A stretch of DNA of 64,000 nt from Desulfurobacteriaceae bacterium (GTDB lineage: Bacteria > Aquificota > Aquificia > Desulfurobacteriales > Desulfurobacteriaceae): contig JALSNF010000045.1 in the NCBI GenBank assembly GCA_026987115.1, positions 27,061 through 91,060 on the forward strand, read 5' to 3'. Made by a program: the position numbers and the translations under genes. Below, in pieces: positions 579 through 4,959 of this stretch. Every line of letters begins with the position of its first letter. Position 1 is the stretch's first letter. Under the pieces are notes generated by a model. That model saw only the letters and a list, made by a program, of their open reading frames with translations, did not search any database and had not been told where the DNA came from.

Positions 579-878
579 ATGAAGGAAATTAGAAGGGAAA
601 GGTTAAAGTCAACTCTCCTTAGGGAGATTTCAGAGATAGTAATGAGAGAAGTTGACCTGCCAGAAGGCGTGTTTATAACGGTTAAGAAGGTAGAGCTCTC
701 TAAAGACGCAAGGAAGGCTACAGTATTTATCTCCTCTTTAAAAAGGGAAGACGCCGTAAAGGCGGTAAACAGGTTAAATAAGGCTAAGGGCTACATACAC
801 CACTTATTAGGAAAGAGGCTTAAATTGAGGACGGTTCCAAGGCCAGAATTTGTAATATCTCCTGAGGAGATAGTATGA
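579..878 (+). CDS. rbfA: Ribosome-binding factor A
   Basis: This 99-residue protein has the single KH-like fold of RbfA: an N-terminal RRERLKSTLLREISEIV helix, LSKDARKATVFIS in the middle and a KRLKLRTVPRPEF strand near the end. RbfA binds the free 30S subunit and is needed for late 16S rRNA maturation. It starts right after the pmbA stop, with GGAGAG just upstream, and overlaps the next gene by four bases. The rbfA to DHH-phosphoesterase order is common in bacteria and supports both calls. The length is slightly short for the family but complete. Confidence 0.93.
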   Translation: MKEIRRERLKSTLLREISEIVMREVDLPEGVFITVKKVELSKDARKATVFISSLKREDAVKAVNRLNKAKGYIHHLLGKRLKLRTVPRPEFVISPEEIV

Positions 879-1843
879 AACTTACGAGACAAGAAACGGC
901 AGAACTCGTAAAGGCCATAAAGGGAAAAGTCTTAATTACCACCCACAAAAACCCCGACGGAGACGCCGTAGGGAGCTCCTTAGGCTGGTTTCACTACTTA
1001 AAGAAACTTGGCAAAGAAGTAAAGCTAATTTACAAAGACCCTGTTCCTCACTTCCTTAACTTCCTTCCTGGAACCGAGAAGGTAGAGACGAGAGAGAAAA
1101 TAGAGGAAGAGTTTGACTGGGTCATAATCACCGACGTTTCAGACCCTAAAAGAACAGGCTTTGAAGGAATACCTGCAAAAAAGAGTTTAGTAATAGACCA
1201 CCACATAACGGCAGAACCCTTTACAGACTACTACATAGTTGAACCTGAAATTTCAAGCACTTGTGAGCTCTCTTACCACATAATGAAACTAATAGAACCT
1301 GAGCTTATAGACACATTCGTTGCCCTTCCCATTTACACTGGAATACTTACAGACACTGGTAGCTTCAACTACTCAAACACAAACTCCCAAACCCACAAAG
1401 TAGCAGCAGAACTCCTTGAAAAAGGGATAGACCCATACTTTGTTTATTCTAACCTCTTTGAAAGGAACAGGTTAAACAAATTTAAACTCTTAGAATTGGT
1501 CCTTAAGACCTTAGACTTTGCAGTGAAAAACAAAGTAGCCCACATTACCCTATTTAAGGAATTCCTTGAAGAAGCTCAAGCCCTTCCTGAAGAGGCCGAA
1601 GGCTTTATAAACTACCCCCGCTCAATAGAAGGAGTAGAAGTAGCCGTTTTCTTTAAAGAGTTTGAAGAGGGAACGTGGAAAGTCTCCCTACGCTCAAAGG
1701 GTAAAGTTAACGTGGCTAAAGTAGCAAAAGCCTTCGGAGGAGGAGGCCACAAAATGGCCGCAGGCTTTGAATGGAAAGGAGAACTTTTCCATCTTAAACA
1801 ACTCCTTTTTGAAAACTTAGAAACAGAACTAAAAGGGAATTAG
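875..1843 (+). CDS. nrnA: DHH/DHHA1 phosphoesterase, NrnA-like oligoribonuclease / pAp phosphatase
   Basis: This 322-residue protein has the DHH motifs in order: HKNPDGDAVGSS near residues 24-35, DVSDPKRTG near 90, the signature VIDHH near 107, and GILTDTGSF near 150. A C-terminal DHHA1 domain carries GGGGHKMAAGF. The family uses two Mn2+ ions to degrade nano-RNA and to dephosphorylate 3'-phosphoadenosine 5'-phosphate; cyclic-dinucleotide products can also be substrates, so the exact substrate is inferred. The ATG is preceded by GAGGAGATAGT and overlaps the rbfA end by four bases, indicating translational coupling. Confidence 0.9.
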   Translation: MKLTRQETAELVKAIKGKVLITTHKNPDGDAVGSSLGWFHYLKKLGKEVKLIYKDPVPHFLNFLPGTEKVETREKIEEEFDWVIITDVSDPKRTGFEGIPAKKSLVIDHHITAEPFTDYYIVEPEISSTCELSYHIMKLIEPELIDTFVALPIYTGILTDTGSFNYSNTNSQTHKVAAELLEKGIDPYFVYSNLFERNRLNKFKLLELVLKTLDFAVKNKVAHITLFKEFLEEAQALPEEAEGFINYPRSIEGVEVAVFFKEFEEGTWKVSLRSKGKVNVAKVAKAFGGGGHKMAAGFEWKGELFHLKQLLFENLETELKGN

Positions 1844-1846
1844 CAG

Positions 1847-2083
1847 ATGAAAATACAGCAGATTTTAAAAGATACTCCTTACAAGTTAAAACTGTTTCCT
1901 GAAGAGATAATCAAAGAATTAGAGGAACGCACTTTTGAAAAAGAGACGAAAAAAGGAAAGAAATTCTATACAAAGTGCATAATAAGAGATAAAGACATAC
2001 AACTAAAACCAGAGGAAGTTATAAGGCAGCTATATTTAAAGTATCCAAAAAACAGAATAAAATTAACTCTAAAAGATAATTAG
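1847..2083 (+). pseudogene. N-terminal remnant of a type I restriction-modification R/M subunit (HSDR_N_2-like)
   Basis: The 78-residue frame resembles, by eye, the start of type I restriction or N-6 methylase subunits that carry an HSDR_N_2-like domain: YTKCIIRDKDIQLKPEEVIR followed by RQLYL. In intact relatives the text runs through several more residues before YPKNRI; here LYLK joins YPKNRI directly, suggesting an internal deletion, and the protein stops 15 residues later. The AT-rich AAA/ATA codon use differs from neighbouring genes. The next frame is the tail of a specificity subunit, so this is read as the left end of a collapsed hsd locus. It may still be translated, being three bases after the phosphoesterase stop. 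Confidence 0.6.
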
Positions 2084-2359
2084 CTTTTTTTAAACTCAAA
2101 GAAAGAAATAAAAGAATTAATGAAACAAAGATGTTCAGGAACTATTCTAACAGCCATCAATAAAGAGGATTTTATAACTATCCCTATTCCCAAAATCAAT
2201 CTCCAAACCCAACAAATCATAAAACAAAAAATCCAACAATCTTTTAAACTTAGAGAGCAGTCAAAACAGCTTTTAGAGACTGCCAAGAAGGCAGTGGAAA
2301 TTGCAATTGAAGAGGATGAAGGAAAGGCTATTAAGTTTATAGAGTGCCAGCTTACTTAA
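2084..2359 (+). pseudogene. C-terminal remnant of a type I restriction specificity subunit (HsdS)
   Basis: The frame opens at the codon after the 2081-2083 TAG and reads LFLNSKKEIKELMKQRCSGT then ILTAINKEDFITIPIPKI and a coiled segment ending AIEEDEGKAIKFIECQLT. The GTILTAI and IPIP text plus the following helix is typical of the end of an HsdS target-recognition domain and its conserved coiled-coil spacer. The ATG at 2120 chosen by the ORF track lies inside the conserved block, so it is not a true start. About 90 residues remain of a protein usually near 400. The TAA overlaps the end of the opposite-strand Omp85 gene. Confidence 0.72.
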
Positions 2360-4959
2360 AAGGGAAAGCCAAAGGAGATGTGAACTCTGCCTCTTCCTTG
2401 GCCGGGAACTTTCTTGAGTTTGTAGCCGTAATCAATCCTTAAAGGGCCTACGGGAGTTAGGTATCTTATGCCAAACCCTACAGAGGAATACCAGTTAGAG
2501 AGAGAAAAGTCTTTAAGAAAGGGAAAGACTTTACCGGAATCGTAAAAGAGAGCTCCCTCTAAGTTGCCCCAAAGGAGCCTTCGGAATTCTAAACTAAACA
2601 GACCGTAAGCTCTACCTCCAACAAAGTTTCCCTTTTTATCGGTGGGAGAGATTGTCCCATACTTATAGCCCCTTACGCTTTCAGCTCCTCCTAAAAAGAA
2701 CCTATCTTCAAGAGGAACTTTCTTATTCCTCAAAGACTCTATAAAGCCAAAGCCAAGCCTAAAAGAGAGAACGCTTTTCCCGTTTAAAGGAAAAAGGTAT
2801 TTAAACTTCGTATTTACAAGGTAATAGGAGGTATCTCCTCCAAAGAGGAAACCGGAAAGTGAGAAGGTATTCTTTAAAAGGTAGCCTTTGTGGGGATTTG
2901 AGATGCTGTCCCTCTTATCGTAAAGTTGAGTGTAAGAGAAAAGCCTTTCAAGGGTTCTCTTTACAGCGTTAATAGAGGTGTCGGTTAATTTTGACCTTAT
3001 AACTCTAAAAGAAAACCTCTGGGTAAGCTGTTTTGATGCTTTTCTATTTAAAGAGAAGTCGTAGTAAATCTTGTTTACTTTAAAGCTCTCAAATATCTGT
3101 TTCTTCTTAACTATTGAGTAAGTGCTGTTATACCTCCTAAAGGGAAACTGAGGCTTTAAAGCTTTAAAAACCATATCGTAGCCTTCTTTCTGTCTGTAGT
3201 TCCCAAAGACAAAATACTTAGTTCCAAGACCTAAAGGAGAGGTTGAAGAAGCAAAGGCGTTTACTACATAGCCTGAATCTGTTCCATAACCTAGAAAGCC
3301 TTTAAACCTTAAAAGAGCTCCTTCTTTAAGGGTTATTACTTCGTTAAAGCACTTCTTCCCTTTAAAACTTTTAAGGGAAATAGATGAAAAAAGCCTGCTT
3401 TCTAAAAGCAGGGAATACTGCTTAAAGAGCTCCTTATTTGAGAAGGTATCTCCAGGCTTAATAATTAGTAAATTCTTTATTGAAGGAAGTTTAGTTCTCT
3501 TAAGACCTTTAACTAGAACAAAGCAAAACCTGTAGGGCTTTCCGGGGTTTACTTTCACTTTTAAAGTAAAGTCTTTCTCTTTCTTGCTCTTTTTAAGGAG
3601 CTCCCTTTCCACCTTCACCACAACTTCAGGATATCCTCTATTTAGATAGCAGGAAGAGAGGGAGTCTGTAATCTGGGATACGAGGAAAGGCGTTAAGGGA
3701 AGAGGTGGCGTTGGCGGTTTAAAGCACCTAAGTTTGTCGCCGATTACCTTAAAAGACACTACTTTAAAAAGAGCTCCTTTATTTACCTTCAAAACCAGTT
3801 TCCCTTGGGGAAAAACTTCATAACTAACGCTCGCTTGCAGATAACCTTCCTTCTTTAAAGAGAGGAGGACTTTAGATTTAACCTCCTCTATCTTCTTATA
3901 GTTAAAGGGCTTACCTACTAAAACCTCTATCTCCTTACGAGGCAATCTATAACCTAAAGAAGAGACTTCCTTAACAACAACGTAGGGCCCCTCATCAATA
4001 AAGAAGATAACCTTAACTAGCTTTTCCCCCTCTTTAACTGAGACTTTAACCTTTACGAAAGGGAAACCTTTACTACGGTAAAAATTGACTATATTTTCTC
4101 TACTGTTTTCAATTTCAAATTGGTCAAAGGAGCGGGCACTCTTAAAGGTCGTAAGTTTTAAGAGCTCTTTTGAAGGAAAGTGTCTGTTCCCTTTGAAAAT
4201 CACCTCATATCTTTTCCCCGGTTTAACTTTAACAAACAGAGAAGCTTTTAAAAACTGGAGTAAACTTGGCCTTTTTTTGTTTTCCTGAGGAACTACCGAC
4301 AACTGTACGCTACAGTTGTAAAAACCTTTATCTATTAACAACTCCTCCAGTCTGTTTCTAACTTTTCCTAAAGTCTCGTAGTTAACCGTAGTGCCTTTTA
4401 AAGGAGAAAGGAGCCTTAAAAGTTTTCCTTTAAAAGAAGGAGGAGCCACTAGAACAATCCTGTTTATGTAAAGCCTATAACCCTTTTTTACGTTAACATA
4501 CAGAAGATAACCACACTTAAGTTTCCTAAATGAAAAGGAAATTTTAGGTTCAGGATATCCTAAAGCCTTAAGTTTAACCTCTAAAATCTGCTTTGTTCCG
4601 CTTAAATCTACCCTATCTACTCTCTTTCCCACTACAAGGAGTCTTATACTCTCTTTTAGACCCTCAAGCTCTTTAGGAAGCCCGCTAAAGAGGACCTTTT
4701 TAACCACCAAATAGTCGCTAATGTAGAGGACTCCCTCCTTCTCCTTAACTTCATAGCCCAGAGCTCTGAGAAAGTCAACGAGCTCTCCCTTACAGTTGCG
4801 GTTTAAAGCACACACTTTTGGGAGCTCCCCTTTAAGCTGTCTAAGGAGAAAAGAAGGGAAACACCCTTTTGAAACAAGTCTAACTCCTTGGCTGTAGGCA
4901 ACTCCCGTAAAGAAGAGAAAAAGAGAGAAAACGGCTAAGAAGGCACTCCCTTTACGTAT
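2356..4959 (-). CDS. Omp85/BamA-like outer-membrane assembly protein with multiple POTRA domains
   Basis: This is an outer-membrane beta-barrel assembly protein: several POTRA repeats (clear copies around YEVIFKGNRHFPSKELLKL and VVKEVSSLGYRLPRKEIEVL) followed by a C-terminal barrel with the Omp85 signature RFFLGGAESVRGYKYG and a terminal phenylalanine. The ORF track starts at GTG 4815, but the frame is open upstream to a TAA at 4984-4986 and encodes a good signal peptide, RKGSAFLAVFSLFLFF, ending near AYSQ. No ATG, GTG or TTG lies in that stretch; an ATA at 4957-4959 follows GGAGGGG at suitable spacing. With that start the protein is about 867 residues. It overlaps the end of the upstream radical SAM gene. 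BamA is likelier than TamA from size, but only by inference. Confidence 0.82.
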   Translation of the reverse strand: MRKGSAFLAVFSLFLFFTGVAYSQGVRLVSKGCFPSFLLRQLKGELPKVCALNRNCKGELVDFLRALGYEVKEKEGVLYISDYLVVKKVLFSGLPKELEGLKESIRLLVVGKRVDRVDLSGTKQILEVKLKALGYPEPKISFSFRKLKCGYLLYVNVKKGYRLYINRIVLVAPPSFKGKLLRLLSPLKGTTVNYETLGKVRNRLEELLIDKGFYNCSVQLSVVPQENKKRPSLLQFLKASLFVKVKPGKRYEVIFKGNRHFPSKELLKLTTFKSARSFDQFEIENSRENIVNFYRSKGFPFVKVKVSVKEGEKLVKVIFFIDEGPYVVVKEVSSLGYRLPRKEIEVLVGKPFNYKKIEEVKSKVLLSLKKEGYLQASVSYEVFPQGKLVLKVNKGALFKVVSFKVIGDKLRCFKPPTPPLPLTPFLVSQITDSLSSCYLNRGYPEVVVKVERELLKKSKKEKDFTLKVKVNPGKPYRFCFVLVKGLKRTKLPSIKNLLIIKPGDTFSNKELFKQYSLLLESRLFSSISLKSFKGKKCFNEVITLKEGALLRFKGFLGYGTDSGYVVNAFASSTSPLGLGTKYFVFGNYRQKEGYDMVFKALKPQFPFRRYNSTYSIVKKKQIFESFKVNKIYYDFSLNRKASKQLTQRFSFRVIRSKLTDTSINAVKRTLERLFSYTQLYDKRDSISNPHKGYLLKNTFSLSGFLFGGDTSYYLVNTKFKYLFPLNGKSVLSFRLGFGFIESLRNKKVPLEDRFFLGGAESVRGYKYGTISPTDKKGNFVGGRAYGLFSLEFRRLLWGNLEGALFYDSGKVFPFLKDFSLSNWYSSVGFGIRYLTPVGPLRIDYGYKLKKVPGQGRGRVHISFGFPF

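What the first reader, a model, noticed from the sequence alone, without database searches (positions are those of the whole stretch)
1847..2359. Collapsed type I restriction-modification locus
Seen: an N-terminal HSDR_N_2-like fragment, with an apparent internal loss between LYLK and YPKN, is followed at once by an HsdS C-terminal fragment whose frame opens at the codon after the stop. The block is more AT-rich than its surroundings. Inference: one large deletion fused the two ends of an hsd operon that once sat between the DHH gene and the Omp85 gene.
Basis: partly seen in the sequence, partly recalled or inferred. Interest (0 to 1): 0.52.

Follow-up and report, generated by a model that had tools for sequence, protein, structure and literature searches.

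The report
Dead remnant of a restriction-modification gene
This is what is left of a foreign DNA-cutting and DNA-tagging defence gene that landed between two housekeeping genes and then lost about 85% of its middle, an ordinary example of gene decay rather than a working system.

Summary
Window 1847-2083 encodes 78 aa matching the extreme N-terminus of an RM protein (HSDR_N_2 nuclease domain fused to an N6 methyltransferase), not of HsdR. Window 2084-2359, in the same frame after one TAG, encodes the last ~90 aa of the specificity (S) part. Intact relatives in about ten genomes carry both ends in one gene or one two-gene operon of 3.4-3.8 kb, with no translocase (HsdR) detected beside it. This is the architecture of Type IIB/IIG systems (BcgI/BsaXI, two chains; AloI/CjeI, one chain), not of a three-gene type I hsd operon. 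The window keeps ~14% of that length. A second, ~21-bp in-frame loss removes a segment with two columns invariant in 22 of 22 relatives. All ten family members in which both genes could be read lack any insert: the DHH and Omp85 genes end on overlapping stops. The block is in the AT-richest 0.2% of the window, as expected for an acquired RM gene. No intact copy or other Methylase_S gene was found in the genome, and no relative conserves the small frames. Best reading: an acquired, probably single-chain RM-S gene destroyed by one large in-frame deletion plus minor damage. Ordinary.

The parts
1847..2083 (+). Fragment 1: N-terminal 78 aa of an RM protein (leading region plus the first ~25 residues of the HSDR_N_2 nuclease domain), ending in TAG 2081-2083
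   Evidence: PADLOC MTase_I 4.5e-15; G100 E=9e-25; domains of the intact relative; alignment of 22 relatives
2039..2044 (+). Point of the ~21-bp in-frame loss, between K65 (codon 2039-2041) and Y66 (codon 2042-2044)
   Evidence: 22 of 22 relatives have the residues, with invariant L and Y columns; one search gives G100 DNA
2066..2083 (+). Junction of the large deletion: 18 nt (TLKDN*) between the last M-homologous codon (L73, 2063-2065) and the clearly S-homologous part
   Evidence: origin uncertain (S sequence or filler resembling the DHH 3' end)
2084..2359 (+). Fragment 2: C-terminal 91 aa of a specificity (S) subunit or domain, stop TAA 2357-2359; first ATG at 2120
   Evidence: Specificity_I 1.2e-8; G033 E=1.4e-17
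1830..1839 (+). Left copy of the 10-bp direct repeat TAAAAGGGAA at the 3' end of the DHH gene (possible target duplication, weak)
2357..2366 (+). Right copy of the 10-bp direct repeat TAAAAGGGAA at the 3' end of the Omp85 gene; contains the 4-bp overlap of the S and Omp85 stops
875..1843 (+). DHH/DHHA1 phosphoesterase gene, left flank of the insertion
   Evidence: synteny
2356..4815 (-). Omp85/POTRA (BamA-like) gene, right flank of the insertion (mechanical ORF from a GTG; the true start may differ)
   Evidence: synteny

Best explanation
A Type IIB/IIG-like restriction-modification gene (nuclease + N6-adenine methyltransferase + specificity domains, most likely one fused chain of about 1150-1200 codons) was acquired horizontally and inserted between the DHH gene and the Omp85 gene. 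It was then inactivated: one in-frame deletion of about 2.9-3.0 kb removed the nuclease active site, the whole methyltransferase and most of the specificity part, joining the first ~73 codons to the last ~91. A small in-frame loss of ~21 bp and a TAG at the junction complete the ruin. Shown: identity of both ends, their order and frame, the missing middle, the empty site in relatives, absence of an intact copy in the draft genome. Inferred: insertion then deletion, a single large event, a fused-chain ancestor. The remnant makes no working enzyme; at most two short inert peptides are translated.
For: Fragment 1 matches the start of RM proteins and fragment 2 the end of S proteins. Several intact systems hold matches to both at their two ends, 3.37-3.81 kb apart, while the window has 0.51 kb, 13-15%. 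Relatives carry HSDR_N_2 + N6_Mtase (+ Methylase_S), and the best solved match is RM.BsaXI, a Type IIB enzyme. The nearest relatives in the phylum, G100 and G002, are fused chains, and both window fragments are in one frame. Ten family members, including all three of the same genus, have DHH and Omp85 stops overlapping with nothing between. AT-richness of 30% matches acquired RM genes: G002's copy is 34% G+C in flanks near 50%. The loss at 2041/2042 covers invariant columns. The genome has no Methylase_S and no other match to the RM fragment.
Against: No intact orthologue of this very gene was found, so breakpoints are approximate and one event cannot be told from several. The genome is a 91%-complete draft in 63 contigs; an assembly collapse of a strain mixture is not excluded. 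The retained residues are well conserved (pN 0.14 against pS 0.80 with G100), which in principle also fits retained function, though it mostly reflects the functional past.
Confidence: 0.87

Rival explanations
1. Remnant of a classical three-gene type I hsd operon (hsdR, hsdM, hsdS) collapsed by one deletion.
For: S domains and N6 methyltransferases are shared with type I systems; PADLOC labels both pieces type I; HSDR_N_2 is named after HsdR.
Against: Fragment 1 aligns with RM fusions (HSDR_N_2 + N6_Mtase in one frame), not with HsdR. No helicase-like HsdR frame or domain was seen beside the relatives.
Confidence: 0.05
2. Assembly artefact: the organism has an intact RM-S gene here and the assembler skipped its middle.
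For: Draft genome in 63 contigs; no reads are available.
Against: The block lies inside a 91-kb contig with flanks syntenic to relatives. An assembly skip would not itself explain the separate ~21-bp loss.
Confidence: 0.05
3. Two functional small genes, for example a co-opted DNA-binding or decoy peptide derived from an RM system.
For: All highly conserved positions but one in the retained part of fragment 1 are intact; a purine-rich stretch (AAAAGGGAA) lies about 8 nt upstream of ATG 1847.
Against: No relative holds such short frames together; G002's 81-aa frame is only the front of a frameshifted full-length gene. A loss covering invariant columns and a stop break the parts.
Confidence: 0.03

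Closest known systems
Single-chain Type IIG/IIB RM-S enzymes (AloI, CjeI type; [quoted passage not shown] PMC3874165)
   Same: Nuclease, N6 methyltransferase and S parts in one chain, as in the nearest relatives G002, L053 and L057; the window's two ends fit the two ends of such a chain
   Different: The window copy is only ~14% of the length and lacks every catalytic part
Two-chain Type IIB enzymes (BcgI, BsaXI: RM + S, (RM)2S complex; PMC11997821)
   Same: RM and S genes adjacent, no translocase; as in relatives L052, L056, L058, L068, G028, G033. Best solved match of the RM relative is RM.BsaXI
   Different: In the window both ends share one frame, and the gene is dead. Match to BsaXI is mainly through the methyltransferase part
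Type I restriction-modification systems (HsdR, HsdM, HsdS)
   Same: Related S domain (Methylase_S) and gamma-class N6 methyltransferase
   Different: No separate HsdR with a translocase motor detected beside the relatives; the HSDR_N_2 domain is fused to the methyltransferase

Membership tests
Type IIB/IIG (BcgI/AloI-like) RM-S system, as a degenerate remnant | Nuclease domain and N6 methyltransferase in one chain | tested here: met
   Met for intact relatives (HSDR_N_2 + N6_Mtase); in the window only the front of the nuclease domain remains
Type IIB/IIG (BcgI/AloI-like) RM-S system, as a degenerate remnant | Specificity part fused to the RM chain or encoded next to it | tested here: met
   Relatives; the window's fragment 2 follows fragment 1 in frame
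Type IIB/IIG (BcgI/AloI-like) RM-S system, as a degenerate remnant | No HsdR translocase in the system | tested here: met
   Neighbours of relatives scanned by Pfam and a helicase motif search: none; not every neighbour was scanned
Type IIB/IIG (BcgI/AloI-like) RM-S system, as a degenerate remnant | Working catalytic residues (nuclease ExK, methyltransferase NPPF) in this copy | tested here: not met
   Absent from both fragments: the copy is dead
[quoted passage not shown]
   Needs purified enzyme from an intact relative
Type I RM system (hsd operon) | Separate HsdR with nuclease plus translocase | tested here: not met
   Fragment 1 belongs to an RM fusion; no HsdR beside relatives
Type I RM system (hsd operon) | HsdS-like specificity subunit (Methylase_S) | tested here: met
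   Fragment 2 hits Specificity_I profiles; relatives hit PF01420. Shared with Type IIB, so it does not discriminate

The most novel reading that the evidence does not exclude
The two in-frame pieces are a co-opted mini-protein pair that still binds RM or S subunits of incoming systems and blocks their assembly, and so are kept by selection.
Probability: 0.02. Interest if true: 0.5.

Novelty: new member of a known kind. Interest (0 to 1): 0.12.

Why it matters
It matters little beyond annotation. It corrects two small ORFs that could be called genes or a type I system, and gives a clean case of an RM gene gained between two convergent core genes and then gutted. A sister genome (G002) carries a related RM-S gene at another place, frameshifted by a 14-bp tandem duplication, so this RM family appears to be gained and broken repeatedly in the genus.

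Tried and rejected
Pfam and NCBIfam on the fragments alone: no usable Pfam hit (noise such as Rpc31, SYCE1, DUF507); NCBIfam gave only MAD5 (S-like) for fragment 2. A second weak match in the genome (C58:14518, E=0.06) is a frame with stops in unrelated sequence. A distant DNA search of plasmids with the block found nothing. Viral contig scans with both fragments: no relatives. Protein searches of plasmids and phages with the G100 relative gave only matches below 60% identity, so no carrier was identified. The 10-bp flanking repeat TAAAAGGGAA as a target-site duplication: the word is over-represented in this window (8 against 1.3 expected) and a match this good arises in 2.6% of 40-mers, so it is only suggestive. 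The junction repeat 2069-2084 against 1829-1844 (14/16) as templated filler: P<0.001 for that word in shuffles but 0.1 for any word of the DHH tail, so unproven.

Full report
Observation. 1847-2083 gives MKIQQILKDTPYKLKLFPEEIIKELEERTFEKETKKGKKFYTKCIIRDKDIQLKPEEVIRQLYLKYPKNRIKLTLKDN and a TAG; the frame reopens directly at 2084 and runs to TAA 2357-2359, in the same phase. G+C of the block is 30.2% against 42.6% for the window, in the lowest 0.16% of windows of that size.

Identity of fragment 1. PADLOC places it on a methyltransferase profile, positions 7-73 of 672, E=4.5e-15. Among 101 genomes the best match outside the own genome is G100 contig 148, 74% identity, inside a continuous 804-aa frame, E=9e-25. 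That frame carries HSDR_N_2 (PF13588, from residue 59), N6_Mtase (PF02384) and Eco57I, and runs to the contig end in a region aligning with the N-terminal part of S proteins. The window therefore keeps the leading region and about 25 residues of HSDR_N_2, and stops before the ADIV...VEVKKP stretch that looks like the nuclease motif. A scan of one genome per species found 23 loci encoding relatives in many phyla, including the same-genus record that matches G002, titled Desulfurobacteriaceae bacterium 4571-419. That places the window in Desulfurobacteriaceae by inference.

Identity of fragment 2. It matches the extreme C-terminus of a Specificity_I profile (397-449 of 454) and the C-terminus of S in the same RM systems: G033 49%, L052 53%, L068 54%, L056 56%. 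The motif CSGTILTAIN is shared.

Architecture of intact relatives. In L051, L052, L056, L058, L068, G028 and G033 an RM gene (about 670-840 aa) overlaps an S gene (465-520 aa); in L053, L057 and G002 the two are one chain. From the RM start to the S end they span 3.37-3.81 kb, of which the window keeps 13-15%. No helicase-like long frame was seen in these loci by motif scan, and the neighbours scanned are mostly unrelated genes. The closest solved protein is RM.BsaXI. The layout fits the descriptions of BcgI-like (RM + S) and AloI/CjeI-like (fused, ~1250 aa) enzymes (PMC3874165; PMC11997821). It does not fit a type I operon with HsdR. The common frame of the two pieces fits a fused ancestor cut by an in-frame deletion; in the two-gene relatives measured S is in another frame. 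A common frame would also arise by chance one time in three.

Damage. All 22 relatives have residues between the equivalents of K65 and Y66, including invariant L and Y columns; the window lacks 7 residues there. The 18 nt after L73 (TLKDN*) could be S-derived or filler; they resemble the DHH gene's 3' end (14/16), which is suggestive only. Against G100, fragment 1 shows differences 12/7/37 by codon position, pN 0.14 and pS 0.80. Fragment 2 shows the same third-position bias against five relatives. This is the mark of a long functional past. Decay is recent on that scale, or too little sequence is left to show it.

Site. In nine family members, including the three of the same genus, the DHH and Omp85 stop codons overlap by exactly 4 bp with nothing between; in a tenth the overlap is larger. 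In the other family members Omp85 was not found beside DHH in the stretch held. In the window the S stop now overlaps the Omp85 stop by 4 bp, and a 10-bp repeat TAAAAGGGAA brackets the block. RM units are reported to insert with short or long target duplications (review PMC3874152), but this word is common here, so the case is weak. The genome has no other convincing match to the RM fragment, no Methylase_S match, and its only N6_Mtase matches are small frames of 250 and 283 aa that look like ordinary non-RM methyltransferases. It is a 91%-complete draft, so absence is not proof.

Conservation test. G002's 81-aa frame is the front of a full-length RM-S gene at another locus, broken by a 14-bp tandem duplication.

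Verdict. A deletion remnant of an acquired Type IIB/IIG-like RM-S gene. The collapse is right; the type I hsd operon and the HsdR N-terminus are not. Ordinary.

Noticed in passing
L044:2219-5760 (G002 contig 17; also L065): A same-genus genome carries a related single-chain RM-S gene at another locus (between a macro-domain-like gene and an RluD-like gene), split by a 14-bp tandem duplication (aaatgctttattag twice). It is either broken or able to revert by slippage.
   Followed up: partly
1829-1844 and 2069-2084: Near-identical 16-mers CTAAAAGGGAATTAGC and CTAAAAGATAATTAGC: the DHH gene's end and the exact deletion junction. Possibly templated filler DNA.
   Followed up: partly
window, 8 places (e.g. 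1830, 2357, 10146, 35244): The word TAAAAGGGAA occurs 8 times on the + strand and never on the - strand, against 1.3 expected on both strands together.
   Followed up: no
L069:7052-7917 and L071:6304-7647: In two Campylobacter relatives about 0.9-1.3 kb separates the RM and S genes, unlike the overlapping genes elsewhere.
   Followed up: no
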